In this document: piece by piece, positions 38,741 through 60,734 of the stretch
How positions within the stretch are numbered: position 1 is the stretch's first letter
Layout: each line of letters starts with the position of its first letter
Source: Acholeplasma hippikon
GTDB taxonomy: Bacteria; Bacillota_I; Bacilli_A; Acholeplasmatales; Acholeplasmataceae
Direction of reading: 5' to 3'
DNA length: 64,000 nucleotides
Assembly: GCF_900660755.1 (NCBI RefSeq)
Contig: NZ_LR215050.1
Span: 1,392,176-1,456,175, forward strand
The notes under the pieces: generated by a model
Databases searched by the model: none
Seen by the model: the letters and a program-made list of their open reading frames with translations, nothing else
What the model was told of the DNA's origin: nothing
Position numbers and translations under genes: made by a program

Positions 38741-41242
38741 ATGAGAAATTACGTTATTAAGTCTTTTATCATCTTTGCGGTAATCTATGCATTTGTAGCT
38801 AGCGTAATTTTAATGATGTTTACATGGTATAACGCATCATTTGAAAAGGACTATGCAAGTGATTTAGGTTATCAACAACATGAAATCTATTTAAATAACT
38901 TAGAAATGAAGTATAGTGAAGACTATGCTTATTTTAGCTCATTAGTAGATAGTAAAACCTTATTACAATTGAATACAGATTTAGATTCAATTGATAGTAG
39001 AGATATTGATTTTGTTGGATTCTATCAAATAAATGATATTGGCATTGAGATTAATGGAACAACTTATCCATTCAAAGACCAAGTATTCTTTGAAAAGAAT
39101 TATGAATCTAATTTATCATTTTTAAGATTAGATGATGTCTTAGTTGGCATAATTGATGATACGTTATATGGTGCATTTATCTATCAGGATGTCATTGGTT
39201 TAATTGATGCTGATAAGTATATGGTTAATTTATTACCACTTCATGCAAGTAATTCAATGATAATTCGTCAAAATGGATTTATCTTAAAGAGTTATAAAGA
39301 AACATCAGCCATCATCTTAAATGACTATGTTTCATCAAGTACAACACAATTGTTTAGTGATTATATTTCTGAAGGTAAATCAGGAAAACAGATCATTTAC
39401 ATTCAAAACGATGAATATTTAATTTCATTTACACAAGTAAAGGATTTACCAATCTATTATTTAACATTCTATAAGATGAATGATTTAATTAGTTCATTTA
39501 CAAATGTTAATCTATATTTATCAGCTGCATTAGTTTCTATAGGAATTGCCTTTTTAATTGCTAATTTATTTACGTTCTATACATCGTTTGTAAGATTTAC
39601 TGATATTGAGAATGCTAGATTAAAGATTTACTTAAATAAACGTTTAATCATAACAATGAATCATAAAGGTAAAATTGTTAACTACAACCGAGTATTTAGA
39701 AAAACAATCTTAAATTATCGAAAGTTTAAACGTATTAAAGACTTTAAGTCAAATCAGTTAGAAGAAGCATCACTTTTATTTGAAAGAGTGAAAAGAGGAT
39801 ACTCATTTACTGTGGAATTGGACACAGTAGATGGATCAAGTTTTGTTATGTTCTTACCTTTAAGAATGGGAATTCATTATGTCTTAGTTGGAGATAACTT
39901 AACAAAAGATGATATGTTATTAAGAGAATACGAATCACTAGCACTATTAAATACCAATACCAAGTTACCTAACTATAACTTCTACCAACAATACATGAAG
40001 GAATTACTAGAAAAAACAGACTTTAGTAAACAGCGTCATGTTGTGGTTGGAATGAACTTACTAGACTTTAGAAGTATTAATAAATTAGTTGGTGAAAAAG
40101 TAGCAAATGAAACATTAGTTGAGTTTGTAAGTACAGTGAAAAAATCACTTAAAGGTTTTAAATATGAAATGTTTAATACCTATGTGGATAACTTCATTGT
40201 AGTTATTAATGAAGTAGAAAAAATGGATGAAGTCTTTGATTGGTTAGAAACATTAATTACCTATTTAGAGGCATCAACAAGCTTAGCGGGAACAACATTA
40301 CAATTAAACTTAAGAGCTGGTATTTATGAATTGATTAATGTTGTATCTGAGGATTTAAACGCAGAAATTATATTTGACCGTGTAATGATTGCCTTAAAAC
40401 ATGCAAATCAAGCGACTACTTCTAAATATGCAGTTTATGATATGACATTACGTGACTTTGTCTCACAACGTCAGCGTTTAGAAAGTAGTTTAATTGAGGC
40501 AATTGAAAAACGAGAATTCGTGATGCATCTTCAACCTCAATTGGATACAAACAGAGGGAGAATTGTTTCATTTGAAGCATTAATTCGTTGGAATAATCCA
40601 AGATATAACCATATTAGTCCACAAGAATTTATTCGTTTAGCAGAAGAAAATAATTTAATTGTTCGTATTGGACAAATTGTGATGGAAGAAACTGCTAAAC
40701 TTGCTAAAAAGTTAGAAAAATATCATGTCACAATCGCGATGAACATCTCACCTGTGCAGATGATTCAAAAAGGATTTGTGAATCAATTAAAAGATATTTT
40801 AGATAAATATCAAATTAATCCACATGCGATTGCATTAGAGGTAACTGAAACATTTATGGTTAACTCAATGCAGTTAATGAGTGAAAAATTAAAGTTACTT
40901 CAAAATTTAGGTATTGATATTCATTTAGATGATTTTGGTATGGGGTATTCATCACTTCTATACTTAAAAGATTTACCTATTAATATGATTAAGATTGATA
41001 AATCATTTATTGATCAAATCACAACCGATAAATATTCTAAAGTAATTGTTAATACAATTGTTTCATTAAGTAAGAATATTGGTGTGGATGTGATTGCTGA
41101 GGGTGTTGAAACTGAGGCCCAAAAACAAGCTGTTAATAAAGCAGGGGTTTCAATTATTCAGGGTTGGTTAATCTCAAAAGCAGTACCATATGAAGAAGCA
41201 CTCTTATTATTAGACAAATATAATGAGAAGCCAAAGAAATAG
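38741..41242 (+). CDS. Transmembrane GGDEF-EAL protein, probable c-di-GMP phosphodiesterase
   Basis: Membrane sensor-enzyme of 833 residues. Helix 1 is at about 7-28, an extracellular sensor domain at about 30-255, helix 2 at about 256-285, a PAS-like linker follows, then GGDEF (about 395-545) and EAL (about 575-825) domains. The GGDEF signature is replaced by YVDNF at 481-485, so cyclase activity is unlikely. The EAL part keeps E612 A613 L614 (FEALIRW), NIS, EVTE, D730-D731 (LDDFGMGYS), KIDKSF and EGVE, the metal and catalytic set. It therefore should hydrolyse c-di-GMP. It is co-transcribed with the next gene, 12 bases downstream. Confidence 0.92.
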   Translation: MRNYVIKSFIIFAVIYAFVASVILMMFTWYNASFEKDYASDLGYQQHEIYLNNLEMKYSEDYAYFSSLVDSKTLLQLNTDLDSIDSRDIDFVGFYQINDIGIEINGTTYPFKDQVFFEKNYESNLSFLRLDDVLVGIIDDTLYGAFIYQDVIGLIDADKYMVNLLPLHASNSMIIRQNGFILKSYKETSAIILNDYVSSSTTQLFSDYISEGKSGKQIIYIQNDEYLISFTQVKDLPIYYLTFYKMNDLISSFTNVNLYLSAALVSIGIAFLIANLFTFYTSFVRFTDIENARLKIYLNKRLIITMNHKGKIVNYNRVFRKTILNYRKFKRIKDFKSNQLEEASLLFERVKRGYSFTVELDTVDGSSFVMFLPLRMGIHYVLVGDNLTKDDMLLREYESLALLNTNTKLPNYNFYQQYMKELLEKTDFSKQRHVVVGMNLLDFRSINKLVGEKVANETLVEFVSTVKKSLKGFKYEMFNTYVDNFIVVINEVEKMDEVFDWLETLITYLEASTSLAGTTLQLNLRAGIYELINVVSEDLNAEIIFDRVMIALKHANQATTSKYAVYDMTLRDFVSQRQRLESSLIEAIEKREFVMHLQPQLDTNRGRIVSFEALIRWNNPRYNHISPQEFIRLAEENNLIVRIGQIVMEETAKLAKKLEKYHVTIAMNISPVQMIQKGFVNQLKDILDKYQINPHAIALEVTETFMVNSMQLMSEKLKLLQNLGIDIHLDDFGMGYSSLLYLKDLPINMIKIDKSFIDQITTDKYSKVIVNTIVSLSKNIGVDVIAEGVETEAQKQAVNKAGVSIIQGWLISKAVPYEEALLLLDKYNEKPKK

Positions 41243-41254: not shown

Positions 41255-42655
41255 ATGTTAGAAACATTAATGATGATTGCATTACTGGCAGTCATGGTTA
41301 CAATTACATACTTTATTGCAAGAAAAGTTATTTTTGAAATTAAATCAGCAAAAGATGAAAAGTCACTTTTAATTGACGGTATTTTAACGCGCTCTGATAT
41401 TAACAGTGTGATTACTTCATATATCACAAGAATTGCTAAGGGTACAACATTTTCTTTAATCTATATTGATTTAGATAAATTTGGTGACTTAAGTGAAGCT
41501 TTCGGTGAAAAAGAATCTAAGAATATCTTAGAAAATATTGCGAAACGTATTAAAAAATTATTACCAACATCAGCAAAAATTGCTAGATACACTGGAGATG
41601 AGTTTTTAATCTTTTTAAATAACCAGTACAGTCAAAAACAAGTGACTGAATATGGGTATAAGATTTTATATGAACTACGTAATAAAACAAAAGTAGCGGG
41701 TGGTACTGAAATTGATTTAACAGCATCTGTTGCCGTATGTTATTACCCAATGCATGGTAATAGTTTAAAGAATTTAATGGATTCATTAAAGATTGCCATT
41801 TATCAAGCAAAGAAAAATGGTGGAAACTCACTTAAGATTTATTCTGAAGAATTAAAAGATCAAGAAGAATCAATTGAGTACTATTATCAAATTAAACACG
41901 CTATTGAACGTCATGAGTTCCAACTATATTATCAACCGATGATCGATTATACAAATAAAAAGATTTATGGTTATGAAGCACTCTTGCGTTGGAACCATCC
42001 AACTTTAGGTGTGTTAGGACCTGACAAGTTTATTAATATCATGGAACAAACAGGAGATATTCACTGGGTTGGTCGTTGGGGTATTGAATCAATTATTAAG
42101 ACAAGTTATGAATTACGTGGCATTCATTCAATGTATGATGATGTAAAAATCAGTATCAACTTAAGTCCTAAACAGTTATTAAGTGAAACCATTGCATCTG
42201 ACTTTGCGAAAGCTGTAAAAAAATTAAAGGGGAATCCTAAAAATATTATTTTAGAGGTTGGAGAGTTTGCGTTATTTGAAAAACAAGAACAAATCTTTGA
42301 GAACCTAGTTAAATTAAGTGAAGTTGGATTCTCAATTGCTGTTGATGGATTCAGTATTGATTTAGCAACTATTAACAGACTATCTAGAATCAATATGGAT
42401 ATGATCAAAATGCGACAAAAGACAATTACTGAAAACGAAACCAATGGTAAGTACTTAGAACTACTCTTAAACTATGTTAAAACAAACGGTAAATTAGTCG
42501 TTGCAGAAGGTGTAGAAGCACTAGATGAAGTTAAAAAGATTGCTAAATTAGGTGTTGAACTATTTCAAGGTTATTATTTTGGAACACCGATGCCATTTAT
42601 TGAGTTACAAGATTATACCGATAAATTCATGGAAAAATTCGGTAACTTAAATTAA
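41255..42655 (+). CDS. Membrane GGDEF-EAL protein, probable diguanylate cyclase with degenerate EAL
   Basis: Protein of 466 residues with a single N-terminal helix (about 3-22) and no sensor domain. The GGDEF domain (about 45-195) keeps the first metal aspartate in YIDLDKFG and a TGDEF signature at 113-117, compatible with cyclase activity. The EAL domain (about 210-460) has EALLRW (E241) but VDGFS at 363-367 in place of the DDFG motif, and the usual IKIDKSF is MIKMRQKTI, so hydrolysis is unlikely. The preceding protein has the opposite pattern. The c-di-GMP riboswitch begins about 60 bases after this stop. Confidence 0.9.
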   Translation: MLETLMMIALLAVMVTITYFIARKVIFEIKSAKDEKSLLIDGILTRSDINSVITSYITRIAKGTTFSLIYIDLDKFGDLSEAFGEKESKNILENIAKRIKKLLPTSAKIARYTGDEFLIFLNNQYSQKQVTEYGYKILYELRNKTKVAGGTEIDLTASVAVCYYPMHGNSLKNLMDSLKIAIYQAKKNGGNSLKIYSEELKDQEESIEYYYQIKHAIERHEFQLYYQPMIDYTNKKIYGYEALLRWNHPTLGVLGPDKFINIMEQTGDIHWVGRWGIESIIKTSYELRGIHSMYDDVKISINLSPKQLLSETIASDFAKAVKKLKGNPKNIILEVGEFALFEKQEQIFENLVKLSEVGFSIAVDGFSIDLATINRLSRINMDMIKMRQKTITENETNGKYLELLLNYVKTNGKLVVAEGVEALDEVKKIAKLGVELFQGYYFGTPMPFIELQDYTDKFMEKFGNLN

Positions 42656-42666
42656 AAGCATTTGTA

Positions 42667-42695
42667 TTGACAAACCATGTTTAATCACATACAAT
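42667..42695 (+). promoter_or_regulatory. Promoter of the surface-fibre operon
   Basis: TTGACA, a 17-base spacer and TACAAT are almost consensus. The transcript would start near 42702, just ahead of the riboswitch aptamer. Confidence 0.85.
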
Positions 42696-42709
42696 CTATT
42701 GCGTATCAA

Positions 42710-42791
42710 TAAAATACACATGTTAAAGGCAAAACTAGGGAAACCTAGTGACGCAAAGCTATAGGGCCTAATTAATGAAATTTGGTAGCCA
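42710..42791 (+). promoter_or_regulatory. Cyclic-di-GMP-I (GEMM) riboswitch aptamer
   Basis: The leader carries the GEMM-I landmarks in order: an AAGGCAAA segment, a hairpin CTAGG-GAAA-CCTAG capped by the GAAA tetraloop, GACGCAAAGC, AGGGCCTAA, then GGTAGCC. These are the conserved ligand-binding and tetraloop-receptor parts of the class I c-di-GMP riboswitch. The 3' end of the aptamer shares bases with the following terminator stem, so ligand binding should prevent termination (an ON switch). That direction is inferred from the overlap. Confidence 0.93.
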
Positions 42792-42822
42792 GTTGTCATT
42801 TCGGATGACAATTGGCTTTTTT
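42787..42822 (+). terminator. Riboswitch expression platform: intrinsic terminator
   Basis: AGCCAGTTGTCAT pairs with ATGACAATTGGCT (13 pairs with one G-U) around a TTCGG loop and is followed by six T. Its 5' arm includes the AGCC of the aptamer GGTAGCC element. It also lies in the path of any read-through from the GGDEF-EAL genes. Confidence 0.93.
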
Positions 42823-42854
42823 GTTTCCAAAAATCAAGAAAGGGGAGAGTATTC

Positions 42855-43535
42855 TTGAGAATATCTGATGTATTCGTCAGTTCAACAACTAAACCTGTTA
42901 GAAAAATGACCAAGAAATTCTTTCTCTTTGGTGCAGGAATCACAGGTTTAATATCAGGACTGATAGCAATCGTAACATTCTATGGACAGTTTACTGGTTT
43001 ATTCACCCTAACCATGCAGCGGGATGCAATGGATAAGGGGATTGAGTTATCAGTAACACGTGATTTTTTAGAACCAAAGTCAACATTATCAATTGAGCCG
43101 ATGAATGAAATTGGTGATATGCTCGAATCAGATATTGATGTTGATGCAGCAAGAAATGTTGATGGACAATTCTATGATGAACGAATTCCATATTATATCG
43201 CCTATACATACTACCTAAGAAACTCAGGTAAAGAAATGGTAAACATTAGTTACCGATTAAGAGTGATAGATAGTTATAAGGGTGTAGATAAGGCAGTTAA
43301 AATAAGATATATCGTAGAAGATTTAGATACCGGAGAAATAAGGGATAAGACTTACATGAAAAAGGGTGATAACCCATATATCATTGATGAAGTCTTAGAA
43401 CGATTTAGTGAAGGTGCAGTAAAAAAAATCACCATCTTTATGTGGTTCGATGGCGAGTATACAGATGCATCAATGTTTGGTGGAGGTATCAAATTAGATA
43501 TGGCTTATTCAATCTTAAACGCGGTGGTGGAATAA
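42855..43535 (+). CDS. Membrane-anchored TasA-like surface protein, first gene of the fibre operon
   Basis: Protein of 226 residues starting at a TTG seven bases after AGGGGAG. A non-cleaved-looking helix (about 22-46, FLFGAGITGLISGLIAIVTFY) follows a basic segment, leaving an extracellular beta-rich domain. The C-terminal strand pattern IFMWFDGEYTDASMFGGG resembles the ends of the next two proteins (VWVEGWDA...F), which suggests a shared TasA/camelysin-like fold. It lacks the AW motif of SipW substrates. A basal anchor for the fibre is plausible. Confidence 0.6.
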   Translation: MRISDVFVSSTTKPVRKMTKKFFLFGAGITGLISGLIAIVTFYGQFTGLFTLTMQRDAMDKGIELSVTRDFLEPKSTLSIEPMNEIGDMLESDIDVDAARNVDGQFYDERIPYYIAYTYYLRNSGKEMVNISYRLRVIDSYKGVDKAVKIRYIVEDLDTGEIRDKTYMKKGDNPYIIDEVLERFSEGAVKKITIFMWFDGEYTDASMFGGGIKLDMAYSILNAVVE

Positions 43536-43536
43536 G

Positions 43537-44457
43537 ATGATTAAGAAATTATATATATCAATTATTGCCTTTTCATTGGCGATCATAGCAACCACAACAG
43601 CAACCTACGCTTGGTTATCGATGGCAACATCAAATGCCGTTCAAGGTTTAGGGTTAAATACACATAACGGAGATCAATTAGAAATCTCAGTTGATGGTGT
43701 TAATTACTATACGAGCTTACCAAGTGAAGAAGTATTAGGTTTAATTCAAAATTTAGTATTCACAGATATCACTAGTATGGATGGTAAAAAGTTCAGTTAT
43801 GGTGTTAGAAATGATAAATTTGAAGCAATTAAAAACAAAGATTACATATCGATAGACTTTTTCTTCAGAACAGTTTCACCTTATTACCATGAAGTGTTCT
43901 TAACAAATAATATTTCAAACGAGGTGACTTATAATGAGGGAAGGGTTGGAACCTATATCGTTTCAAAAGGAAGAACTTGGATATCTAATGTAGGGTTCCA
44001 GTATGGTCCTGATGAATATATCGATGGTTCAGTTACTAAAACCTATTATGTGAGTGATGCAATGAGAGTTTCATTTGTTGAACACTCAGATAATGGTAAA
44101 GTTAAAATATTTGATTTAAGTGGAAATGAAGAAAGAGGTTATGGAAAACCTTATGGTGCAGTAGCTTACTATGAAGCATTAAAAGGCACACTTCAACTTC
44201 CAAGTGAAGTTCCTGATACAATTTATAAATTATCAGACTTCGACAAAGAAAATCCTTATGCACTAGATAATCGTAGTCATATACTTACACTTAAGTACGA
44301 TGGCCATCATGCCGATAGTGGTCTTCGCTTATATGAAGGAAAAGTGACAATGAATATTTGGGTAGAAGGTTGGGATGCGGATTTATTTGATGCAGTATTT
44401 GGAGATCAGGTAAAGATGCAATTCCAGTTCAAATCAGTTATAGGTATCAAGAACTAA
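43537..44457 (+). CDS. TasA/camelysin-like protein with SipW-type signal peptide (minor subunit candidate)
   Basis: Protein of 306 residues. The signal peptide ends in ATYAWLS, the hallmark of SipW-dependent substrates. The mature part begins with a segment (LEISVDGVNYYTSLPSEEV) close to that of the next gene and ends with VTMNIWVEGWDADLFDAVFGD. The two are clearly homologous. It starts one base after the previous stop. It is probably a minor fibre component or cap. Confidence 0.78.
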   Translation: MIKKLYISIIAFSLAIIATTTATYAWLSMATSNAVQGLGLNTHNGDQLEISVDGVNYYTSLPSEEVLGLIQNLVFTDITSMDGKKFSYGVRNDKFEAIKNKDYISIDFFFRTVSPYYHEVFLTNNISNEVTYNEGRVGTYIVSKGRTWISNVGFQYGPDEYIDGSVTKTYYVSDAMRVSFVEHSDNGKVKIFDLSGNEERGYGKPYGAVAYYEALKGTLQLPSEVPDTIYKLSDFDKENPYALDNRSHILTLKYDGHHADSGLRLYEGKVTMNIWVEGWDADLFDAVFGDQVKMQFQFKSVIGIKN

Positions 44458-44481
44458 TATATTTGGGAGATGTATTAGTTC
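44451..44481 (+). other. Intercistronic hairpin ahead of the major subunit candidate
   Basis: GAACTAATAT pairs with GTATTAGTTC (ten pairs, one G-U) around an 11-base loop. No T run follows, so it probably stabilises or delimits mRNA rather than terminates it. Confidence 0.65.
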
Positions 44482-44530
44482 CTAAAAATAAAATTAAAAA
44501 AAGTTAAATGAAAAAGGGAGAATATATAAA

Positions 44531-45493
44531 ATGAGTTCATTAACAAAAAAATTATTTATATCAGTATTAACATTAATCGTAACGGTTGGTGCATTCGCTG
44601 CAACAACATTCGCGTGGTTCACATTAGGTAACCAAGCACAAGTAGGTCGTATCGATGCAAACGTACAATCTGCAGAAGGTTTAGATATTTCATTAGATGG
44701 TTCAAATTGGAAGAGCAATATTTCATCAGCTGAAATTAACTCATTCTTATTTACTGGAGCTCCAGACTTCACATTTAGAGCATTAACTTCTAAAGATGGA
44801 AAATCAATTCTTAGTCCAAATGATGTAAAAGTGGATGCTTCCACATCACCTGCTCTTGATGAAGATTACTTAACAGAAGGTTTCATTTATTTTGAATTAC
44901 ATTTTAGATCAAATCAAGCTGGTGTCGTTAAATTATCAAATTTAGCATTAACATCAAATCCAGGAACTTTTAACGCTGATCAAACATTCCTTGCAATTAA
45001 TAATTCTGGATCATATACAGTTACATCATATGATCCAGAAGCAGAAGATCATTCAGGAACTCAAGTTATAACATCAGTATTAGATGCAATTAGAGTAAGT
45101 TTTGAATATGGTGCTAATGTAACAGTTTATGAATCAGCGGCTTCAACAACAAATACATTAACAAACGCTACAAATGCTCCAACATTTGCTGGCGCACATT
45201 CATACTTTGTAGAAAAAGGTAATGCATTATTAGGTATTTCAAAAGTGACTAATCCATCAGACTATGAATCACTTTTAACTACTGAATTAGGAAATATCGA
45301 ATTACCTTCAACATCACAAACTTTCCCAACTGGTGGAGCAAATGCATTATCAGTATTAACTCTGGCTTCAGGTGTTTCTCAATCAATTAAAGTAAGAGTA
45401 TGGGTTGAAGGTTGGGATGCACAAGCGTATAACGCAATTTTTGAATCACAATTAGGATTAGCATTAACATTTGATTTCACTCCAAACGCTTAA
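44531..45493 (+). CDS. TasA/camelysin-like protein with SipW-type signal peptide (major subunit candidate)
   Basis: Protein of 320 residues. The signal peptide ends in ATTFAWFTLGN. The mature part has LDISLDGSNWKSNISSAEI, paralleling the previous protein, and a C-terminal VRVWVEGWDAQAYNAIFES motif. It has its own leader of about 70 bases after a stable hairpin, a strong AAAAAGGGAG ribosome site, and a second hairpin after its stop. This layout is usual for the most abundant product of an operon, hence the proposed major subunit. No cysteine or sortase motif is present. Confidence 0.78.
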   Translation: MSSLTKKLFISVLTLIVTVGAFAATTFAWFTLGNQAQVGRIDANVQSAEGLDISLDGSNWKSNISSAEINSFLFTGAPDFTFRALTSKDGKSILSPNDVKVDASTSPALDEDYLTEGFIYFELHFRSNQAGVVKLSNLALTSNPGTFNADQTFLAINNSGSYTVTSYDPEAEDHSGTQVITSVLDAIRVSFEYGANVTVYESAASTTNTLTNATNAPTFAGAHSYFVEKGNALLGISKVTNPSDYESLLTTELGNIELPSTSQTFPTGGANALSVLTLASGVSQSIKVRVWVEGWDAQAYNAIFESQLGLALTFDFTPNA

Positions 45494-45526
45494 TCTTACT
45501 TAAAATAAAAAATATATAAAGTAGAC

Positions 45527-45561
45527 AAGAGGCTTGTATAAGCTCATTATATGAGCCTCTT
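45527..45561 (+). terminator. Partial terminator or attenuating hairpin after the major subunit gene
   Basis: AAGAGGCT pairs with AGCCTCTT. An alternative inner stem GCTCAT-TAT-ATGAGC competes with it. Only a poor T-rich tail follows, so read-through is likely. It could lower expression of the downstream peptidase and ATPase genes relative to the subunits. Confidence 0.6.
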
Positions 45562-45602
45562 ACTCTCTATGAAGACAAAAATCGATATTTAGAATATAAA
45601 TG

Positions 45603-45632
45603 TTAGATTTTCACACAAAAATATCATATAAT
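45603..45632 (+). promoter_or_regulatory. Possible internal promoter before the first signal peptidase
   Basis: TTAGAT, an 18-base spacer and a perfect TATAAT. A 12-base palindrome CATCTATAGATG (45651-45662) follows, touching the ribosome site. The -35 is weak. Confidence 0.45.
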
Positions 45633-45675
45633 GAAATAAAGGCGTATTATCATCTATAGATGGGAGATAAAATTT

Positions 45676-46362
45676 GTGGAACAAGTAAAAAAACAACCAA
45701 CAGGGGTTAAAGTTGCTAAGATCATCTTTAATGTCCTATTCTATTTAATTATTGCAACATTACTCTTATATTCTGTTATCGTAATTGCTTCAAGAGGAAA
45801 TGAAAATAACATTCCAAATATTTTCGGAAATGGCTTCCTTGCAGTAAAATCTGAATCTATGGAAGGAACTAATCCGGATTCATTCTCTAAGAATGATTTA
45901 ATTTTTGTGAAAATTCTTAAAGAATCAGAAAAAGAATTTCAAGTAGGTCAAGTGGTGACCTTTAAAGATCCAGCTAAACGTGGAGAATTAAATACCCACC
46001 GTATCGTAGAAATCATTGGTAATTATTACCGTACACAAGGTGATAACACGAATGAACCTGATTTCTATTTATTAGAAGCAGAAGACATCGTTGCGGTTTA
46101 CACAGGTAAAGCAAAAGGTTTAGGTGGATTCGTTCTATTCATTCAATCACAAACAGGCTTTGCATTATTAGTTTTACTCCCAATTTTCTTAGTGTTAGTA
46201 TATCAAGGTTATAAAGTACTATCTGCAGTATTTGCCATTAAGAAAGAAAAACTAATTCAACAACATGCTGAAGAAAAAGCGAAAGCTCAAGCTGAGTTAG
46301 AAGCTGAAAAAGAAAGAATGAGACAAGAATTATTAGAAGAATTAAAAAAAGAAAAAAAGTAA
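45676..46362 (+). CDS. SipW-type signal peptidase I with C-terminal coiled coil
   Basis: Membrane serine peptidase of 228 residues, GTG start nine bases after GGGAG. An N-terminal helix (about 14-36), the nucleophile S61 in KSESMEGT, H108 in NTHRIVEI, and D123 in QGDNTNE match the Ser-His-Asp archaeal/ER-like type (SipW), not the Ser-Lys bacterial LepB type. A second helix (about 155-178) and a charged coiled-coil tail (about 190-228) follow. It probably cleaves the two preceding TasA-like proteins at the AW motif. Confidence 0.9.
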   Translation: MEQVKKQPTGVKVAKIIFNVLFYLIIATLLLYSVIVIASRGNENNIPNIFGNGFLAVKSESMEGTNPDSFSKNDLIFVKILKESEKEFQVGQVVTFKDPAKRGELNTHRIVEIIGNYYRTQGDNTNEPDFYLLEAEDIVAVYTGKAKGLGGFVLFIQSQTGFALLVLLPIFLVLVYQGYKVLSAVFAIKKEKLIQQHAEEKAKAQAELEAEKERMRQELLEELKKEKK

Positions 46363-46393
46363 ACTAATTTTTAAGAACTCGAGGTAGAAACGA

Positions 46394-52120: not shown

Positions 52121-52696
52121 ATGAAGGTAAAAACAGTTGTAAGATTTGTTTTGTTTATATTAACATTACTGTCTTTTATCGGCTCAGCTGTTTTTGCTTG
52201 GAGCACATACGTTAAAAGTACACAACCAATCATGTTTTACTCTGGACGACTTAATGTTGAGGCTAAACTTTACCAATTGATTGACGCAAATTATGATGGT
52301 GAAGATCCTAACAATGAATACATAGAAATTACAGAAGCATATGAGTTTACAAAGTTAGTACCAGGACAAGTCTTCTCATTTAAAATAGAAATGACAAATG
52401 CTGGAACAATCCCTGGATATTTAAAACTAGAAATGGCTTTAAATAGCCTTTCGAATAGTGATGTATTTCAACATTTATTAATTGAATATAATTATCCAGA
52501 AGAAAATTTGGTATCACAAAATATAGACTATAACATGTTATTTTTCCAAAATAAATATTTAAATCCTGGTTTGGCAAATACTTATACGTTCTACTTTAAT
52601 ATAAAAGTTAAGCCTGAACTTGGAAATAATTTTAAATCACTTGATTTAGTAATCGATAAATTTATCGTTACATTAGATCAAGTAGAAACAACCTAA
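52121..52696 (+). CDS. Camelysin-like secreted protein with SipW-type signal peptide
   Basis: Protein of 191 residues. The signal peptide ends in GSAVFAWSTYVKST. The mature part has LVPGQVFSFKIEMTNAGTIPG, the same P-G-x-x-x-F-x-I-x-x-x-N-x-G pattern as the protein at 50394. It follows the compact peptidase by three bases and is probably its substrate. Confidence 0.72.
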   Translation: MKVKTVVRFVLFILTLLSFIGSAVFAWSTYVKSTQPIMFYSGRLNVEAKLYQLIDANYDGEDPNNEYIEITEAYEFTKLVPGQVFSFKIEMTNAGTIPGYLKLEMALNSLSNSDVFQHLLIEYNYPEENLVSQNIDYNMLFFQNKYLNPGLANTYTFYFNIKVKPELGNNFKSLDLVIDKFIVTLDQVETT

Positions 52697-52710: not shown

Positions 52711-53373
52711 GTGAAAAAAAGACTGATTCTATTTTCACTCATCTTCATCTTATTCATTACAAGCACTTATATTGGTGCTGTTTTAACTTCGCAAGGAAAT
52801 AAGGATGATGATTTTGAAGTAGGATTCGTTAAGGTTGATTTAAATGCTTATTTTGAAAAGAATAATATCATTTATGACAAAGATGATGGAATAGAAGCAA
52901 TCCTTCATCAAGGCGGAGAAACGATAGTTAAAAAAGGTGTTTATGCATTAAACATTACAGACAGTAATCACGTTCAATTTATTGAGAACTTTAGAGTGAA
53001 GTTTAATGTAAGTAGTAATGTGGATACTTACTTTAGAGTTCGTTTTTTAGAATCAAAGATTTTAAGAACAGTAAATAGCCAAGGGCAAATTACTGAATAC
53101 GTATTAATTGGTGGATTCCCATTAAATATAACAAATGATTTCTATTTACATACAGATGGTTATTACTACTATAAAAATAGAGTTCAAAGAGTTGATCAAG
53201 ATACAAAAAGAGAGATTACATTTATTGGGTCATATTTCCCTGGCCAAAGTTTCGCAACAGCACCTGTTGGACAAGAACTTCAAGTAACATTTAAAATTGA
53301 AGCCGTTCAAGCGGTTGGTGGTCCTGTTGAAAACTGGCGATTATTAACACCGCCGTGGGGAGGTAATTGGTAA
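52711..53373 (+). CDS. Secreted or membrane-tethered camelysin-like protein
   Basis: Protein of 220 residues with a GTG start. An N-terminal hydrophobic segment (about 4-24) ends in TYIGAVLTSQGN, without the AW motif of the others but with similar spacing. The mature domain is beta-rich (VKVDLNAYFEKNN, FRVKFNVSSNVDTYFRVRF) and ends with PPWGGNW. Its stop overlaps the giant gene's ATG as TAATG, so the two products are made in step and may interact. Confidence 0.6.
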   Translation: MKKRLILFSLIFILFITSTYIGAVLTSQGNKDDDFEVGFVKVDLNAYFEKNNIIYDKDDGIEAILHQGGETIVKKGVYALNITDSNHVQFIENFRVKFNVSSNVDTYFRVRFLESKILRTVNSQGQITEYVLIGGFPLNITNDFYLHTDGYYYYKNRVQRVDQDTKREITFIGSYFPGQSFATAPVGQELQVTFKIEAVQAVGGPVENWRLLTPPWGGNW

Positions 53374-56300
53374 TGAAAAAATTCATAACAGTTCTTTCAC
53401 TTTTATCGATTGCGGTATTCTTAGGGGCAATCTTAAGTACTTCTAGTGATATTTTCGCAGCAGATGTTGAACCACGTGAAGATTTAATCGAACATGACTT
53501 CGGTTCATTATTACCTAATTTAGAAATTAGTTCATATATTAGTTATTCTGATTTTAGAACAATGTTAAACGGATATATTTCATCAAATCCAAGTAATGTA
53601 AATGCAGTAGTTGACTTAATTGATGAAAATATCTTAGATGAAAATAAAATCATTCGTATTGATACAGCACAAGAACTGTATCGTTTTAGCGTTGATGTGA
53701 GTTTCTTGGATTCAATTAAATACGAATTAGAAACAACTAAATTACCAATTGAAGTTAGAAATAAAATGCTTGATTTAGATTATGCACTTGGTAATCATGT
53801 TGATTATAGTGTCATGAAGTCTCGTCAATTTATTCCAATTGGCTATTCATTTGAAACAATCGATAATACGCCATATGAAAAGTACTTTACAGGTACATTT
53901 AATGGTATGGGCTTTACAATCTCTAATTTAGCAGTCGCTGGATATAATGCAATACATATTATTGAAGGTGAAGATGAAACGGAAATTGAAACAGTTATTT
54001 CACCATACTATTCAATGTTTACACACAATAGTGGAGTTATCACGAATTTTGGATTAGTTAACCCTACATTCGAATTACGTGTAGACCATGAAAACCTAAC
54101 GAAGGCTGCTAACATTGTCGGCTTAAATGAAGGCTTAGTTGAAAAGGTGTATGTCGTAGATGAAAGAAGCCAAGCAGATGCTGGCTTTAGAATGAAAACA
54201 CCAGTAGGGGCAACAACCAGTCAATATGAAGCAGCTGGATTAGTGTATGAAAACGCAGCTGGTGCCGTATTTAAAGACAGTTATTTTGCTGGACGTTTAG
54301 TTGTTAACCAATCTAATGTGAATGCATTTAATGTTCAACCAGTTTTATTTAAAAACAGTGGTACAACAGCTAAGTTAGTTTATGATAACCAACTTTATTT
54401 AACTTCACTAACCGTAGGTGGAAGTACAGTAACAATTACGCCAGTAAATAACTTACATATTGGTGAGGCAACAAATACATTAAAAGGATCATCTAGTTTA
54501 GGTAATGCATTCTTTTATTATCCAACAGATGGTTATCCAAAATTAGTTGGATTAGCTTTTGTTGATAATTATTTTGAAATTCATAATGCATTTGAATTTA
54601 GATACTTTACATTAATGATTACTTTTAATGGTAACTTTAATGGTAAAGCATATCGCCAACATAATTATCGTTTAGTTAATCATATTAACATAGATGATAT
54701 TGCCCCAAATTCTATTAAAACAATTGCAGTAGAATTTGAAGGTATTTTATCTGGTGAAAGTGAAGAAACTGAAAACTATCATATCTATAACTTAAAAATT
54801 TCTGATGGTGTATTAAACCAAGGCGCTTATCATCTAGGATTATTTAGTCTTTTAAAAGGTGAAGTAAAAGATATTAACTTTAAAGACTTTGAATTAACTT
54901 ATACAAATAGTTCTAATTATACAAATATTCATAGTTATATTGGTGCAGTTGCAGCAAGAATGGATGATGGTAAAATCACCAACGTCATGTTAGACTTAAA
55001 TACTAATTTAGGCAATGAAATGATTGGACGATTTAGTTATGGTGCATTTAGTGGATATGCTTCAGGTACGATTTATGGTGCTTATGTTGAAGGCGAACAC
55101 GAAATGGGTAACCATGCACCAAATACAACTTCATATGCTTTTGAAGCATATATTGGTGGTATTGTTGGTAGAACAGCAAATAAACAATTAAAAGTATATA
55201 ACGCACTTAATCGTGCAAAAATAAATAGTTTTGGTACAACAGGATCAGCTCAATATAACGCAAACACTCAAGTCTATGTGGGTGGTGTGATTGGTTATGT
55301 AGAAAACATTGTAGGACAAGTAAATGACTTTGGATTAATTACGAATGAAGGTGAAATTGTTGTTCGCCATATTCAAAGTAATCGCGATGTCAAAGTGTTT
55401 ATCGGTGGAGTCATTGGAGAATCTAGTGGTGCCGCATACATTTTAAATGACTTAAGTGGTATTTGGGTAAATAAAGGTAAATTTAATTTAACACTTCGTG
55501 CAACATCAAACCCTAATGAAACTTATTTATCTGGTGTTGTAAACTCAAGTCATAATGCTTCAACAGAGTTTATTTATCTACAAAATAAAAAGCCTGCTGA
55601 TTTATTAATTACAACATTAACAAACTTTAAATTTGCAACTGTACTATATCATCGTGGTACTGGCGGAATTACTCTATCACAATCATATAATGAAATGGAT
55701 GTAGAGTTTTCATCAACTACACCATATACTCAAGCATACTCTGGTTTATTCCACACAGAAGGTAGTGCCGAAAACCTCTTAAGATTCGTTGAAAACAAAG
55801 GTAATATTATCTTTAGAGGATTTACAACAAATCAAAACTTTATTATATCAGGTATTACAACTGCAACAAATACTGACTTTTTAAATGTAATTCAAAGTGG
55901 TGAAATTGCAGTTTATAATATTACATTTAATCCTACAACAAGAGAAATTATGACTAATAGTGGGACAAATAATAATGATCAAAATATTTGGGTTTCTGGT
56001 ATTACTTATTTACTTTCAAGTGGTAAGTACATTAAGAATTCAATGAATAATGGGGCTATTTACGTAGCCGATATAAATTCAACATCAAATATTTATATTG
56101 CAGGTATTGTAAATAGAAACCAATCTGGAGATTTACATAATAAAGATACTGATAATATTCCTAAAGCAACATATGGTATTTTAAATACTGTTAATAATGC
56201 GAATATTTCATCTACCTTACCAGACCATTATGGTCTTAACAATCATGGCATTAAAGGAAGAGCAAATACTTACGTAGGTGGTATTGTTACCTTTAATGGT

Positions 56301-59300
56301 GCTGATACTGGTGGTAGTATTCAAGATACAATTAACATGGCAGATATTACATTTAGCCATATTGTTACATCAGGGGAATCAAATAGTAGTGTAACTTTTG
56401 CCTCATCATCAAATGGTGGTTACGTCACAAACTATCGCAGAGGTATTATCTTAGGTGGTATTGCAGCTGCAGTTTCACATGGATATTCAAGAATTTATGA
56501 CTCTGTTAATAGTGGTAATATTATTGCTTATTCTAAATACTTTGCAAGAACAGGTGGCGTTTTAGCAATTGCCTTAAGAGATGAATTAGAAATGGGTAAT
56601 GTTAATACAGCATTATTTACCGGTATTACAGCAACTAATGATGATCGAACAATTATTAACTCGGTTTTAAGAAATGGGTTAAACTACGGAAACATCGCAG
56701 CTGTTACAGAAAACTTAGATCCTTATAGTACAGGAAACAGTAGTACTGTTTCACCAACAGTAAGACCGGGTGGAGGAACAATTACGTATCTTGGAGCATC
56801 TGGAACTACAACTAATACGAATTTATCATACAAGCCATCAACAACAGATAGACCAGGTATTACAAGTTCATCTGGTGGTGTTATTGGATATGGTTTATCA
56901 ACCATGAGTAAGATGCTAAACCATGGTCAAATCAGTTCAACTGACGTTGCTGGTGGTGTTGTTGGTGCAACAGTTGTCGTTAACTCATTCCATGTAAAAA
57001 TTGATACGGCAATTAACTATGGTACCGTACGTGCGATTAATAATTCAAGTTATGGAACTTTTGATAAAAAGAATTTTAACTATGATCAAATTAAAAATGC
57101 ATTTTATGATCATAATGCATCATTTATCATTCCAACGATTGATAGAAACCAAATGTGGATAACAGTTGTTCCTGATACAAAAAGAGGTATTGGTGGTGTA
57201 TTTGGTCGTCTTCAAAGAAGAGAACAACAATACATGCGTACTGCAGATGGTATTTTTGACTTTGTTGTAAACATGGATCCGAATGTTGATATGATTGGAC
57301 GCTTAGACCAGTACTATAATTTCTCAACTTCAAATACATATTTTGTGTTTGATGGAGCTTTATATTATTCAGCTAAATTAAATGATACAACACAAGCTGT
57401 ATTTAATGGCCATCGTTATAAAGACGCCTCAAATGCTTATCCAATCACAAGAAGAACTGCAACAAGAACTGTTATTGAAAAGGCATATTACAAATATCGA
57501 GAAGTTGGTAATACAGTTCAAAAGCAACTCATCCATATTAGATATCAGGTTAAAGAATTTGAAGTATCTGGTGGAAGACAATATCTTTACTATGGTTATG
57601 GAAGTGCACAAGAACAAACGCCAGAAACTGTAGTGATTAGAAGAGATTTTGTTGCCAATACAACAACTGAAATAGAGGCAACTGGATGGGTTACTGTGAA
57701 TGAACCTTATCCGGGACCTCGCTCAGAAAATTTCCCAGTTAAAAGACAAGTAATTAGTGAATCTTTTGAAAATCACAACCCATCAGTAACATCGGGTACA
57801 TATTTTCTTGGGTCAAATCCAGTTCCATTTATTTCTGAAGATGAATCATTTGAAAATGACAATCAAAAGTATGTATATCATCCTGAGTTTATTATGCGCG
57901 ATGATTCAACAATGGTTGATAAAAAACCAATTACAAGTTATATTTACTATGTAGAAAATGATATTCTAGGAGAAAGATTCAAAAGTAGTCGTCCAAATGG
58001 TATGTACGTACTTGCAACATCTGCAGGTAGCCAATTGGGTGCGACATTACCGGCAAATATTAAACTAGATCAAATTTATCAATTAAATAGTTATTTACCA
58101 TATCATGTGGATTATGAAAATATTCCTCTTCAATATAAAGAACAACTTGAAGAAGAAGTTCTAGATGAGTATTTATCTTTATTCCAAACATCATTAAATG
58201 ATAAATCTAAACTTTTAACAACCAATCAATTTATTAAAGTTCAAAACACAACAGGTTCAATTAAACTTTATGGTAATTCAGCATCTGTAGATAATGGTTC
58301 AAATACAATTACGTTAAGATTAAATCGTGCAACAACATCATATACTTCAAATCAAATTGTTCAGATGATTGAAGCAGTTTTACCAACAAACGCGAAGATT
58401 GCTAAAACAGCTTCTGATGCAGGTTTTGGTAATAATTTAGAAGCATACCGACAAGCATTATTAAACGAAGGTTATATGGATGTAAGTAATTTATATCGAC
58501 CAGAATTTACACTAACAAATGTTAACTCAGGAACTTATGAGGTAGGAGAATTTGTCTCATATAGCCAAGCAGCTTTAAATCTTTCAAGTTTATTTGTTGA
58601 TGGATATTATTCTACAACCTATACTGTTTATATTGAATACTACAATAATGCTACAACCATTCCTGGACATTATCAACATCAATTTGATAATGGTACGATT
58701 AATACAAGAGGAACACCAAATACCTCGACTGACTTAGAACTTACAGGATCGTTCACATCGATTTTAAGAAATGTTTACAGAATTAACTCAGGAATTAATA
58801 CATCAATTATTACATTAGGTTATGATATTAAAGATAGTTTTAAACTTCAATATAATAACAATGGCACATATATTGATGTAGATGCACAATACTATAGTCT
58901 AACAACCATTCCATTTAGAAATACATCAGGAAGTATTTATGAATTTGAATATACGGTTAACTTTAGTCCAGAACTTAAGGGTGGAAGTTATCGTATCGTG
59001 TATGATTTTGGTCAAGGGCCAAGATATTTAAGAATAACAAAGGCTAAGAGCACAGAAAATAGTATCTTATCAATAAGTCATGAAACTGAACAAATCATAT
59101 ATAATCCAACAACGACATTTACAACAAATATTGATTTTGATTATGATTTATTAAGTTCATATACTGGAGATTATGGTTCAACAATTAACTCAAACATTCC
59201 AGCATATTTAGATAATTATGAACATAATATACCGTTTTTAAATCACTTAAACATATCTAAGTTTGCAAGATTAGAAAATGTAATGGTATCAGGTCCTACA

Positions 59301-60734
59301 TATAATAACGGATATAAAACATATACCGTTACTTATCAAGTGATATCTGAAAATGGCAATATTAAACCATATACACACTATATTGTTGAACGTCCATTTA
59401 CAGTATCAGCAGTTTATAAAGACAATATTTCAGTAAATATGAATAGTTTAACTGCGTTACGTGAAGCAGTTGAAACTGTATTTGGGATTAACTTCCAATT
59501 AAATAATGCATTAATCAATCAAATTATGCAGTTAGAATCAACTAGTAGTTATCAACACTTTGACTTTGTTGTTACTGCAAAATACCCAAATGGTAATACA
59601 ATGCCTTCAAATGAAATTGTGGGTATTAGTTATTCTGTAAGTAATAACTTAAATATTCATATGAGTGATGCAACCATTCCTGGAACATATACTATTACCA
59701 TGCTATATATTAGAGATGGTAGACAAACAACTATTACACCTAATATTGTTATCACTAAAAATCAAGGTACATCAAGTTACTTAAAAGATATTCGATTTGC
59801 TGAAAATAGTCAGGATACAGATTATCCAAATATTTACATCAGTAATGCAAGTGGTGCAATCGTTCAATCGACTTACTTACCAAGTGCATACTACGCTGGT
59901 ATTGACTATGATGGCGCTGATTTAGCAAACATTCGTCATTTTAGAGTTGACGGTACAGTAGCAAATATTCCATTAAATGAATATAGCCCACTCATGATTG
60001 ATTTTTTACCACCAGGTGCAACAATCGCAAGACTGATTAATCCGGTAACAAATCAGTACACCATTGAAATAGGTAAAAATTCATCAGCTGCTGAAAAAGA
60101 ATTATTAAATACTAACTTTACATTAAAATATGATGGTAGTGAACCAACGGATGAAGAAGAAGTTATTATTACTTATCGTGTTACATCTGAAGATGGATTG
60201 ACACAAACTTATTATCATACAACAGTTATGGATAAGACTTATAACTTATCAATTATCTTTGAAGTTTATTATGGTTCAATTAATCCAGAAGGATTATTAG
60301 AAGTTACTCGTTTCTATAACAAAACGTTTGTTATTATGGTAACTAACTTTACAGCTAAAGATAGTAATGGTAATCTAATTCCTAATACAACATTAGGTGT
60401 TCCAAACTTCCCACAATTTGCTTCAGTAGGCCAAATTGAATCAACAGTAAATATGTTCTATTCAGCAATTGATCCAAATATATATCGCTACCGCTTTGGT
60501 AGAAATAAATCAGGATTCTATAACTTTGATGTGTTATTACCAGAAGACGAATTAACTTATCAAATTAAGTTTAATAATGAAATTTTAGGTGATACACCAA
60601 TCTTAGGTGGTAAATATTTCTATATCGTAAATGGTAATAGAAATAGAACGAGAACTTTTCAAATCTTAATTTCTGAAACAAGTGAAGTTGATAAACTATG
60701 GGGATTATATGATTATAAGACCGAATGGAATTAA
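53373..60734 (+). CDS. Giant beta-helical surface adhesin
   Basis: Protein of 2,453 residues. I start at the ATG at 53373, eight bases after GGGGAGGT; a TTG six bases earlier is too close to the ribosome site. A signal peptide (about 1-30) is followed by a short alpha/beta region. A large GLUG-like right-handed beta-helix spans about 130-1280, marked by recurring GG(I/V)(V/I)G, N-x-G-x-I and SxNxGxI rungs. Beta-sandwich Ig-like domains run from about 1560 to the end. There is no sortase motif or C-terminal helix, so attachment must use partners, perhaps the TasA-like proteins. It is the last operon gene and is probably the adhesive tip or matrix protein. Confidence 0.8.
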   Translation: MKKFITVLSLLSIAVFLGAILSTSSDIFAADVEPREDLIEHDFGSLLPNLEISSYISYSDFRTMLNGYISSNPSNVNAVVDLIDENILDENKIIRIDTAQELYRFSVDVSFLDSIKYELETTKLPIEVRNKMLDLDYALGNHVDYSVMKSRQFIPIGYSFETIDNTPYEKYFTGTFNGMGFTISNLAVAGYNAIHIIEGEDETEIETVISPYYSMFTHNSGVITNFGLVNPTFELRVDHENLTKAANIVGLNEGLVEKVYVVDERSQADAGFRMKTPVGATTSQYEAAGLVYENAAGAVFKDSYFAGRLVVNQSNVNAFNVQPVLFKNSGTTAKLVYDNQLYLTSLTVGGSTVTITPVNNLHIGEATNTLKGSSSLGNAFFYYPTDGYPKLVGLAFVDNYFEIHNAFEFRYFTLMITFNGNFNGKAYRQHNYRLVNHINIDDIAPNSIKTIAVEFEGILSGESEETENYHIYNLKISDGVLNQGAYHLGLFSLLKGEVKDINFKDFELTYTNSSNYTNIHSYIGAVAARMDDGKITNVMLDLNTNLGNEMIGRFSYGAFSGYASGTIYGAYVEGEHEMGNHAPNTTSYAFEAYIGGIVGRTANKQLKVYNALNRAKINSFGTTGSAQYNANTQVYVGGVIGYVENIVGQVNDFGLITNEGEIVVRHIQSNRDVKVFIGGVIGESSGAAYILNDLSGIWVNKGKFNLTLRATSNPNETYLSGVVNSSHNASTEFIYLQNKKPADLLITTLTNFKFATVLYHRGTGGITLSQSYNEMDVEFSSTTPYTQAYSGLFHTEGSAENLLRFVENKGNIIFRGFTTNQNFIISGITTATNTDFLNVIQSGEIAVYNITFNPTTREIMTNSGTNNNDQNIWVSGITYLLSSGKYIKNSMNNGAIYVADINSTSNIYIAGIVNRNQSGDLHNKDTDNIPKATYGILNTVNNANISSTLPDHYGLNNHGIKGRANTYVGGIVTFNGADTGGSIQDTINMADITFSHIVTSGESNSSVTFASSSNGGYVTNYRRGIILGGIAAAVSHGYSRIYDSVNSGNIIAYSKYFARTGGVLAIALRDELEMGNVNTALFTGITATNDDRTIINSVLRNGLNYGNIAAVTENLDPYSTGNSSTVSPTVRPGGGTITYLGASGTTTNTNLSYKPSTTDRPGITSSSGGVIGYGLSTMSKMLNHGQISSTDVAGGVVGATVVVNSFHVKIDTAINYGTVRAINNSSYGTFDKKNFNYDQIKNAFYDHNASFIIPTIDRNQMWITVVPDTKRGIGGVFGRLQRREQQYMRTADGIFDFVVNMDPNVDMIGRLDQYYNFSTSNTYFVFDGALYYSAKLNDTTQAVFNGHRYKDASNAYPITRRTATRTVIEKAYYKYREVGNTVQKQLIHIRYQVKEFEVSGGRQYLYYGYGSAQEQTPETVVIRRDFVANTTTEIEATGWVTVNEPYPGPRSENFPVKRQVISESFENHNPSVTSGTYFLGSNPVPFISEDESFENDNQKYVYHPEFIMRDDSTMVDKKPITSYIYYVENDILGERFKSSRPNGMYVLATSAGSQLGATLPANIKLDQIYQLNSYLPYHVDYENIPLQYKEQLEEEVLDEYLSLFQTSLNDKSKLLTTNQFIKVQNTTGSIKLYGNSASVDNGSNTITLRLNRATTSYTSNQIVQMIEAVLPTNAKIAKTASDAGFGNNLEAYRQALLNEGYMDVSNLYRPEFTLTNVNSGTYEVGEFVSYSQAALNLSSLFVDGYYSTTYTVYIEYYNNATTIPGHYQHQFDNGTINTRGTPNTSTDLELTGSFTSILRNVYRINSGINTSIITLGYDIKDSFKLQYNNNGTYIDVDAQYYSLTTIPFRNTSGSIYEFEYTVNFSPELKGGSYRIVYDFGQGPRYLRITKAKSTENSILSISHETEQIIYNPTTTFTTNIDFDYDLLSSYTGDYGSTINSNIPAYLDNYEHNIPFLNHLNISKFARLENVMVSGPTYNNGYKTYTVTYQVISENGNIKPYTHYIVERPFTVSAVYKDNISVNMNSLTALREAVETVFGINFQLNNALINQIMQLESTSSYQHFDFVVTAKYPNGNTMPSNEIVGISYSVSNNLNIHMSDATIPGTYTITMLYIRDGRQTTITPNIVITKNQGTSSYLKDIRFAENSQDTDYPNIYISNASGAIVQSTYLPSAYYAGIDYDGADLANIRHFRVDGTVANIPLNEYSPLMIDFLPPGATIARLINPVTNQYTIEIGKNSSAAEKELLNTNFTLKYDGSEPTDEEEVIITYRVTSEDGLTQTYYHTTVMDKTYNLSIIFEVYYGSINPEGLLEVTRFYNKTFVIMVTNFTAKDSNGNLIPNTTLGVPNFPQFASVGQIESTVNMFYSAIDPNIYRYRFGRNKSGFYNFDVLLPEDELTYQIKFNNEILGDTPILGGKYFYIVNGNRNRTRTFQILISETSEVDKLWGLYDYKTEWN

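What the first reader, a model, noticed from the sequence alone, without database searches (positions are those of the whole stretch)
38741..60734. A c-di-GMP-switched surface fibre/adhesin system built around an McrB-like ATPase
One contiguous 22 kb block holds c-di-GMP-making and -breaking enzymes, a c-di-GMP-I riboswitch, six TasA/camelysin-like proteins, three SipW-type signal peptidases, a membrane-anchored McrB-like AAA+ ATPase, a DUF2357-like coiled-coil protein and a 2,453-residue adhesin, with no gene on the other strand. TasA-SipW fibres are known from Bacillus biofilms. I know of no described system that joins them to an McrB/DUF2357 pair under direct riboswitch control.
Basis: partly seen in the sequence, partly recalled or inferred. 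Interest (0 to 1): 0.95.

Follow-up and report, generated by a model that had tools for sequence, protein, structure and literature searches.

The report
c-di-GMP-switched fibre operon with repurposed McrBC
In an Acholeplasma-like bacterium, a run of genes behind a predicted RNA switch for the signal molecule c-di-GMP encodes likely surface-fibre proteins, the peptidases predicted to trim them, and a membrane-tethered relative of the DNA-restriction motor McrBC that has no detectable nuclease and likely helps to build the fibres rather than cut DNA.

Summary
The block is real. A consensus promoter, c-di-GMP-I riboswitch and terminator precede 13 co-directional genes: three SipW-type peptidases, small secreted proteins (five with SipW-type signals), an NxD-motif McrB-like AAA+ protein with a membrane helix, a DUF2357/McrC-stalk protein with a ~155-residue C-terminal helix and no nuclease domain found, and a ~2,450-residue secreted protein. 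Among loci fetched from a 198-genome class sample, 42 of 54 AAA+ genes of this size class lie with SipW peptidases and SipW-signal or TasA-like genes; 50 of 54 are followed by the DUF gene. The riboswitch is in 29 of 44 SipW-type loci there and 52 of 80 named loci, always co-directional. Its terminator uses the aptamer's own 3' strand (93 of 113; shuffles 17%), predicting an ON switch. The upstream GGDEF-EAL pair keeps EAL but not GGDEF motifs: predicted breakers, not makers. A paralogue clade swaps TasA-like cargo and riboswitch for a cadherin-like giant and a protein with degenerate GGDEF and EAL sites. Bell et al. 2024 named the AAA+/peptidase link (CoCoPALM) but deferred its analysis. New here: likely cargo, c-di-GMP wiring, cargo swap. 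How the AAA+ pair acts is inferred.

The parts
38741..41242 (+). GGDEF-EAL protein 1 (833 aa); GGDEF degenerate (YVDNF), EAL intact; predicted c-di-GMP phosphodiesterase; upstream of the riboswitch
   Evidence: Pfam EAL 220 bits, GGDEF 42 bits; motifs
41255..42655 (+). GGDEF-EAL protein 2 (466 aa); GGDEF site TGDEF, EAL intact; predicted phosphodiesterase
   Evidence: Pfam EAL 176 bits, GGDEF 80 bits; motifs
42667..42695 (+). promoter-like site TTGACA-17-TACAAT
   Evidence: 11 of 12 consensus matches, best in 42500-60800; such sites as a class are no more frequent than in shuffles
42718..42800 (+). c-di-GMP-I riboswitch aptamer
   Evidence: RF01051 69.1 bits; R1 89.1 bits, but the window row was in R1's own alignment
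42787..42817 (+). intrinsic-terminator-like hairpin, 14 pairs; its 5' arm is the 3' strand of the aptamer: predicted ON switch
42855..43535 (+). first gene after the switch (226 aa), one N-terminal membrane helix, no SipW-type signal by the regex; conserved in the loci
43537..44457 (+). secreted protein with SipW-type signal (ATYAWL), 306 aa; conserved
44531..45493 (+). secreted protein with SipW-type signal (TTFAWF), 320 aa; best fold match is the TasA fibre
45494..45675 (+). 182-nt gap holding an inverted repeat (AAGAGGCT...AGCCTCTT) without a T-run; possible processing or attenuation point
   Evidence: sequence printed
45676..46362 (+). SipW-type signal peptidase 1 with a charged tail (~42 aa after the last membrane helix), predicted cytosolic
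46394..47929 (+). membrane-anchored McrB-like AAA+ NTPase, NxD motif GTANKDDS
47940..49835 (+). DUF2357/McrC-stalk protein; predicted helix 473-628 where McrC has its nuclease
49832..50404 (+). SipW-type signal peptidase 2 with a short charged tail
50394..51101 (+). secreted protein with SipW-type signal (SAFAWL), 235 aa
51111..51671 (+). camelysin-like secreted protein with SipW-type signal (GILAWL), 186 aa
   Evidence: PF12389 20.5 bits (cut-off 22.5); TIGR04088 16.9 bits (cut-off 19)
51671..52117 (+). SipW-type signal peptidase 3, no charged tail
52121..52696 (+). secreted protein with SipW-type signal (AVFAWS), 191 aa
52711..53373 (+). secreted or membrane-anchored protein, 220 aa; no SipW-type motif by the regex
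53367..60734 (+). very large predicted surface protein (2455 aa), N-terminal signal-like helix, no C-terminal membrane helix listed; predicted adhesin

Best explanation
This is a conserved operon, predicted to be switched on by c-di-GMP, in which a membrane-tethered McrBC-like AAA+ pair without a detectable nuclease likely powers or organises the maturation and assembly of predicted SipW-processed, TasA-like surface fibres. Shown: order and co-direction of the genes; the aptamer and a terminator built from its 3' strand; conserved neighbourhood across several families; NxD motif and membrane helix of the AAA+ protein; McrC-like stalk and long C-terminal helix in the model of the DUF2357 protein; intact EAL but non-canonical GGDEF motifs in the upstream pair. 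Inferred: (1) high c-di-GMP holds the aptamer closed, so the terminator cannot form and the operon is read; (2) the two upstream proteins break c-di-GMP and so oppose it; (3) the SipW peptidases cleave the AxAW-type signals; (4) the AAA+ protein forms a ring under the membrane into which the DUF2357 stalk inserts, as McrC does in McrB, its long helix replacing the nuclease and reaching the charged tails of the peptidases; (5) NTP turnover of this ring drives or gates processing, release or polymerisation of the subunits, with the ~2,450-residue protein as likely adhesin. The wall-less state of Acholeplasma (recalled) would suit an assembly platform at the membrane.
For: Context: in the loci fetched from the class sample (80 loci, 89 AAA+ genes of at least 380 aa; not every match was fetched), of 54 AAA+ genes of 480-570 aa, 42 have an S26 peptidase plus SipW-signal/TasA-like genes nearby and 50 are directly followed by the DUF gene; in the 80 best named loci 79 have S26 nearby, 65 both, 63 the DUF gene next (labels). 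SipW-signal regex base rate 1 of 76 distant ORFs and 1 of 34 ORFs of the window outside the block. Riboswitch: 29 of 44 SipW-type loci of L030-L089, all 29 co-directional, none in the other 16 loci of that set; 93 matches in 52 of 80 named loci, all on the AAA+ strand; next ORF P1/TasA-like or SipW-signal in 129 of 138. By genome, c-di-GMP-I in 39 of 68 AAA+-bearing versus 29 of 130 other genomes, Fisher p 1.5e-6, no correction for kinship. ON switch: terminator arm equals aptamer 3' strand in 93 of 113 distinct tails versus 377 of 2260 shuffled; the same logic was measured for Bc2 RNA of B. thuringiensis (PMC4933901 passages). AAA+: the profile finds only McrB chains in the PDB at E<=0.01 (3 sequences, best 6.7e-4); GTAN[KNRQ]D[DE]S in 136 of 149. 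DUF. Cargo. Of 16 named AAA+ loci with no DUF gene next (not at an edge), 13 come from an assembly that also has a DUF-bearing locus (my matching of record names and contig lengths), as if the DUF protein were needed. Coupling to surface proteins recurs in the paralogue clade.
Confidence: 0.6

Rival explanations
1. An anti-phage (type IV restriction-like) system that happens to be carried with surface genes.
For: McrB/DUF2357 families are mostly restriction systems (PMC11090510); PADLOC PDC-M26A hit; other AAA+ types lie by defence genes: type II restriction pair (L188), PglZ (L186), Orf5/HEC-06 (L181), DRT3 pair (L182), and an AbiLi-like ATPase after the cadherin-type locus L056.
Against: No nuclease Pfam family in any of 43 DUF-family proteins; membrane helix in 134 of 134 AAA+ proteins of 480-570 aa; strong linkage to SipW peptidases and riboswitch. 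PADLOC and Pfam were run on 136 of 162 unlabelled neighbour proteins (only the 25 commonest of 158 and 76 families are shown); of 20 followed up by locus, defence-type hits (a glycogen-enzyme-like C3a214/GlgB match in L057 not counted) fell at L056, L181, L182, L186 and L188, none at a SipW-type locus.
Confidence: 0.08
2. The AAA+/DUF pair is a membrane quality-control or extraction machine (FtsH-like in role) that clears uncleaved or misassembled preproteins rather than building the fibre.
For: AAA+ machines often unfold substrates (general knowledge); SipW substrates are membrane-held before cleavage; charged tails on the peptidases.
Against: No protease domain other than the signal peptidases seen in the block; paralogues lie beside a giant protein with a C-terminal membrane helix.
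Confidence: 0.2
3. The pair is a regulator or gate: it controls SipW activity or surface display in answer to c-di-GMP, without doing mechanical work.
For: c-di-GMP proteins are frequent neighbours; in the paralogue clade a membrane-anchored protein resembling GGDEF-EAL, with neither motif in 9 of 9, precedes the AAA+ gene, which recalls LapD (recalled).
Against: In the SipW type the sensor is RNA acting on expression, and the adjacent GGDEF-EAL proteins keep EAL; Walker A/B and NxD motifs are kept, suggesting active turnover.
Confidence: 0.2
4. A force-generating device: the AAA+ ring moves or retracts surface fibres for adhesion or gliding.
For: NTPase plus very large surface proteins in many loci; coiled-coil rod.
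Against: No motility is known to me for Acholeplasma; no force link across the membrane was seen in the SipW type.
Confidence: 0.04

Closest known systems
CoCoPALM systems (Bell et al. 2024, eLife RP94800, PMC11090510; section 7 and find passages read)
   Same: NxD-motif McrB-like NTPase with N-terminal membrane part, DUF2357 partner with coiled coil, signal-peptidase genes alongside.
   Different: The main text has no occurrence of TasA, camelysin, c-di-GMP or riboswitch and defers the group to a later paper; supplements not read. Likely cargo, c-di-GMP switch, phosphodiesterase pair and the cadherin-type paralogue are added here.
Bacillus tapA-sipW-tasA and B. cereus sipW-tasA-calY matrix operons (search listings; PMC13082335 abstract and section list only)
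   Same: SipW-type peptidase with SipW-signal, TasA/camelysin-like proteins.
   Different: Here three peptidases, an McrBC-like AAA+ pair, a very large surface protein and a riboswitch; none of these extras is part of those operons (recalled).
Bc2 riboswitch-cap of Bacillus thuringiensis (PMC4933901, passages)
   Same: c-di-GMP-I riboswitch with terminator acting as an ON switch for a surface adhesin.
   Different: Controls an adhesin gene; here it precedes a run of 13 genes.
McrBC type IV restriction
   Same: AAA+ family and McrC stalk domain.
   Different: No nuclease domain found, membrane anchor, NxD instead of NxxD, no DNA-reading domain seen.
PcdA of Staphylococcus aureus (PMC10602043, passages)
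   Same: McrB-family AAA+ protein taken over for another cell task instead of restriction.
   Different: Cell-division factor without a McrC partner; Walker motifs degraded there, intact here.

Membership tests
CoCoPALM | NxD signature motif, usually followed by D or E | tested here: met
   GTANKDDS in the window; GTAN[KNRQ]D[DE]S in 136 of 149 AAA+ ORFs, 10 without a regex match, 3 other
CoCoPALM | McrB-like domain fused to an FtsB-like membrane/coiled-coil segment | tested here: inconclusive
   Membrane helix in 134 of 134, but no FtsB/DivIC Pfam hit in 10 N-terminal segments
CoCoPALM | Signal-peptidase-family genes beside the pair | tested here: met
CoCoPALM | McrC homologue with DUF2357 and coiled coil | tested here: met
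   PF09823 in 23 of 43 (not in the window protein itself); helix 473-628; McrC top of VIA
McrBC type IV restriction | PD-(D/E)xK nuclease in the McrC homologue | tested here: not met
   Only DUF2357 found in 43 proteins; model residues 415-628 are helical and the McrC match ends at model residue 265-270
CoCoNuT | HEPN or other nuclease encoded next to a nuclease-less McrC | tested here: not met
   No nuclease family among the block's proteins in Pfam
TasA-SipW fibre systems | SipW-type (Ser/His) peptidase | tested here: met
TasA-SipW fibre systems | Subunits with SipW-type signal | tested here: met
   5 of 7 small proteins by regex
TasA-SipW fibre systems | TasA fold and fibre formation | tested here: inconclusive
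   TasA fibre best but modest match for one protein; fibre formation needs an experiment
c-di-GMP-I riboswitch | Rfam RF01051 aptamer above gathering score | tested here: met
   69.1 bits against 35
LapD-like c-di-GMP receptors (paralogue locus only) | Membrane protein with catalytically degenerate GGDEF and EAL | tested here: inconclusive
   GGDEF and/or EAL Pfam hits in 8 of 9, some below cut-off (one EAL only, 17.2 bits), none in L069; neither motif in 9 of 9; binding untested, no LapG-type protease sought

The most novel reading that the evidence does not exclude
An McrBC-derived AAA+ ring with a coiled-coil rod is a new class of NTP-powered builder of bacterial surface fibres, unrelated to type IV pili, sortase and chaperone-usher systems. 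Its c-di-GMP input is interchangeable: an ON riboswitch in the TasA-like version, a dead GGDEF-EAL receptor protein in the cadherin-giant version that arose from it by duplication.
Probability: 0.3. Interest if true: 0.92.

Novelty: new variant of a known kind. Interest (0 to 1): 0.74.

Why it matters
CoCoPALM was named in 2024 from gene neighbourhoods, with its analysis deferred. This locus gives it a likely cargo (SipW-processed TasA-like proteins and very large surface proteins), a signal (c-di-GMP through a predicted ON riboswitch) and cultured hosts (Acholeplasma granularum, A. oculi, Paracholeplasma vituli, Peloplasma aerotolerans), so the question of what a nuclease-less McrBC does becomes directly testable. 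It also suggests that a restriction-type motor family moved to envelope biology, and offers a natural comparison in which the same machine has changed cargo and, likely, c-di-GMP receptor.

Tried and rejected
PDB profile searches with the DUF and TasA-like alignments gave nothing useful. Foldseek with the DUF model: no match at E<=0.001. FtsB homology of the AAA+ N-terminus: not found. The phylum-level search showed only genomes of the same class among its rows, so it added little. A defence reading was tested with PADLOC and Pfam on 136 of 162 unlabelled neighbours (26 dropped for the residue cap; ORFs under 80 or over 1300 aa or cut by an end were not in the 162) and by naming the loci of 20 of them; the family lists are capped at 25 rows. 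PDC-M26 has no paper in the library. Literature: McrB+SipW gave one paper, seen in the listing only and judged unrelated; CoCoPALM 10 papers, of which the eLife paper and its preprint are relevant by title; Acholeplasma+c-di-GMP 4 papers, none on this by title and abstract start, not opened; Acholeplasma+biofilm+signal peptidase 6, likewise; SipW/TasA/c-di-GMP/riboswitch, 20 of 38 listed, none joining them to McrB by title and abstract start; FtsB/McrB/signal peptidase from 2023 on, 3 papers. 'Not in print' rests on these searches of one open-access library; supplements were not read.

Caveats on counts: gene labels rest on my ORF caller, HMMs built from the first loci and a regex; the P1 and TasA-like profiles grew into each other on iteration, so they count as one class; 480-570 aa is my size class; several AAA+ matches were not fetched; the named 80 loci are the best matches to the query, not a random sample, and some are the same contigs as loci of the first set; model R1 was built from 35 riboswitches that lie in the window and the first locus set, so those match by construction; three end-cut riboswitch matches (L061, L075, L111) were left out, the first two being added back.

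Full report
What is there. The window lies in a 1.47-Mb genome (99.5% complete) whose nearest named relatives are Acholeplasmataceae. At 42667-42695 is a promoter-like site with 11 of 12 consensus bases, at 42718-42800 a c-di-GMP-I riboswitch (69.1 bits), and at 42787-42817 a 14-pair hairpin followed by a T-run. Thirteen co-directional genes follow, mostly overlapping or a few bases apart, with gaps of 73, 182 and 31 nt before the third, fourth and fifth. Two GGDEF-EAL genes precede the switch.

The c-di-GMP part. The genome has 13 GGDEF matches, so c-di-GMP could be made elsewhere. The terminator's 5' arm is the conserved 3' strand of the aptamer, so the two folds exclude each other. This holds in 93 of 113 distinct riboswitch tails, against 377 of 2260 shuffled ones; over all riboswitches the test passed in 110 of 141, eight of the rest lacking the GCCAG strand. 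I therefore predict an ON switch, as measured for Bc2-cap (passages).

The cargo part. Five of seven small proteins carry SipW-type signals. The model of 44531-45493 (mean pLDDT 74.4) has the TasA fibre as best match in both aligners, modestly, tied with FimA pilins in the second. Only 51111-51671 hits camelysin by sequence, below cut-off.

Conservation. Of 198 genomes of the class, 68 have the AAA+ protein at E<=0.001. I fetched 80 loci. Of 89 AAA+ genes of at least 380 aa in them, 51 lie with both S26 and SipW-signal/TasA-like genes; of the 54 of 480-570 aa, 42 do and 50 have the DUF gene next. Nine of the other 12 are the paralogue type below. The ten of 800-1000 aa have no S26 in range. 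Among 80 named loci, from Acholeplasmataceae to MAGs labelled Clostridia, 79 have S26 nearby and 65 both. The riboswitch is in 29 of 44 SipW-type loci of the first set and in none of its other 16 loci, and in 52 of 80 named loci. It is often in tandem (up to four copies, L043), and in many loci a further copy stands before the downstream surface genes.

Against. Fifteen of 44 SipW-type loci show no riboswitch, including all seven of family f12. Defence genes do lie beside other members of the AAA+ family: a restriction pair at L188, PglZ at L186, Orf5/HEC-06 at L181, a DRT3 pair at L182, and an AbiLi-like ATPase after the cadherin-type locus L056. None of the defence-type hits that I could place fell at a SipW-type locus, but only 20 of 136 scanned neighbours were placed and the family lists were capped.

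The paralogue. The same genome has a second AAA+/DUF pair (L030) preceded by a 2613-aa cadherin-like protein with a C-terminal membrane helix and by a membrane protein with degenerate GGDEF and EAL. Nine such loci form one supported clade nested inside the riboswitch/SipW clade in a FastTree tree (quick method, some long branches elsewhere). Eight of the nine adjacent proteins still hit GGDEF and/or EAL in Pfam (some below cut-off, L070 EAL alone) and L069 hits neither; none of nine keeps either motif. Three of the giants were scanned and all three hit the cadherin-like family. So the pair seems to follow surface proteins and c-di-GMP even when cargo and receptor change. This is my main argument that its job lies at the surface and not with DNA.

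Known or new. Bell et al. 2024 named CoCoPALM for this branch and deferred it (section 7 read). The main text has no TasA, camelysin, c-di-GMP or riboswitch, and I found no later paper in the library. Membership is met on three of four features; FtsB homology was not detected. I therefore file it as a new variant of a known, named but unexplored kind.

How sure. Operon, switch and conservation: high. ON logic: likely. That the AAA+ pair builds, gates or clears the fibre: inferred from context and anatomy only.

Noticed in passing
L030 (own genome C1:1317001-1337000) and L200: Paralogue AAA+/DUF pair with a 2613-aa cadherin-like membrane protein, degenerate GGDEF-EAL protein and GGDEF-EAL protein; SipW-signal genes and an S26-like ORF lie a few kb downstream.
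   Followed up: partly
L083-L086, L088: AAA-DUF-AAA arrangement: two short AAA+ genes around one DUF2357 gene, beside very large proteins, no S26 label in the locus.
   Followed up: partly
L087, L089, L170-L177: Version with a ~600-aa AAA+ protein, mostly with an S26 protein of ~290-375 aa and SipW-signal proteins; ABC-transporter-like genes follow in L087.
   Followed up: no
L178-L186: Pairs of a ~900-aa membrane AAA+ protein and a DUF2357 protein with no SipW peptidase; near PglZ (L186), an Orf5/HEC-06 gene (L181) and a DRT3 pair (L182), so this branch may sit in defence islands.
   Followed up: partly
L056:12793-14142: AbiLi-like ATPase gene directly after the DUF gene of one cadherin-type locus.
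   Followed up: partly
L043:11425-11876, L041:10183-10506, L105:4167-4552, L107:6053-6368: Tandem c-di-GMP-I riboswitches, three or four in a row.
   Followed up: no
L045:13176-13255, L046:6830-6909, L126:13928-14003, L127:13935-14008, L131:13941-14016: Second riboswitch before the downstream surface genes, without terminator and close to a start codon: possible control of translation.
   Followed up: no
L112, L113, L116, L119, L120, L122-L125, L128-L130, L132, L142, L144, L164: AAA+ loci with no DUF gene directly downstream; 13 of these 16 come from an assembly that also holds a DUF-bearing locus.
   Followed up: partly
G000:C1:484312-485112: Camelysin-family matches elsewhere in the genome, one in a 1073-aa frame.
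   Followed up: no
window 60784-63851: MscS-like channel and NlpA/ABC transporter genes on the minus strand directly after the block.
   Followed up: no
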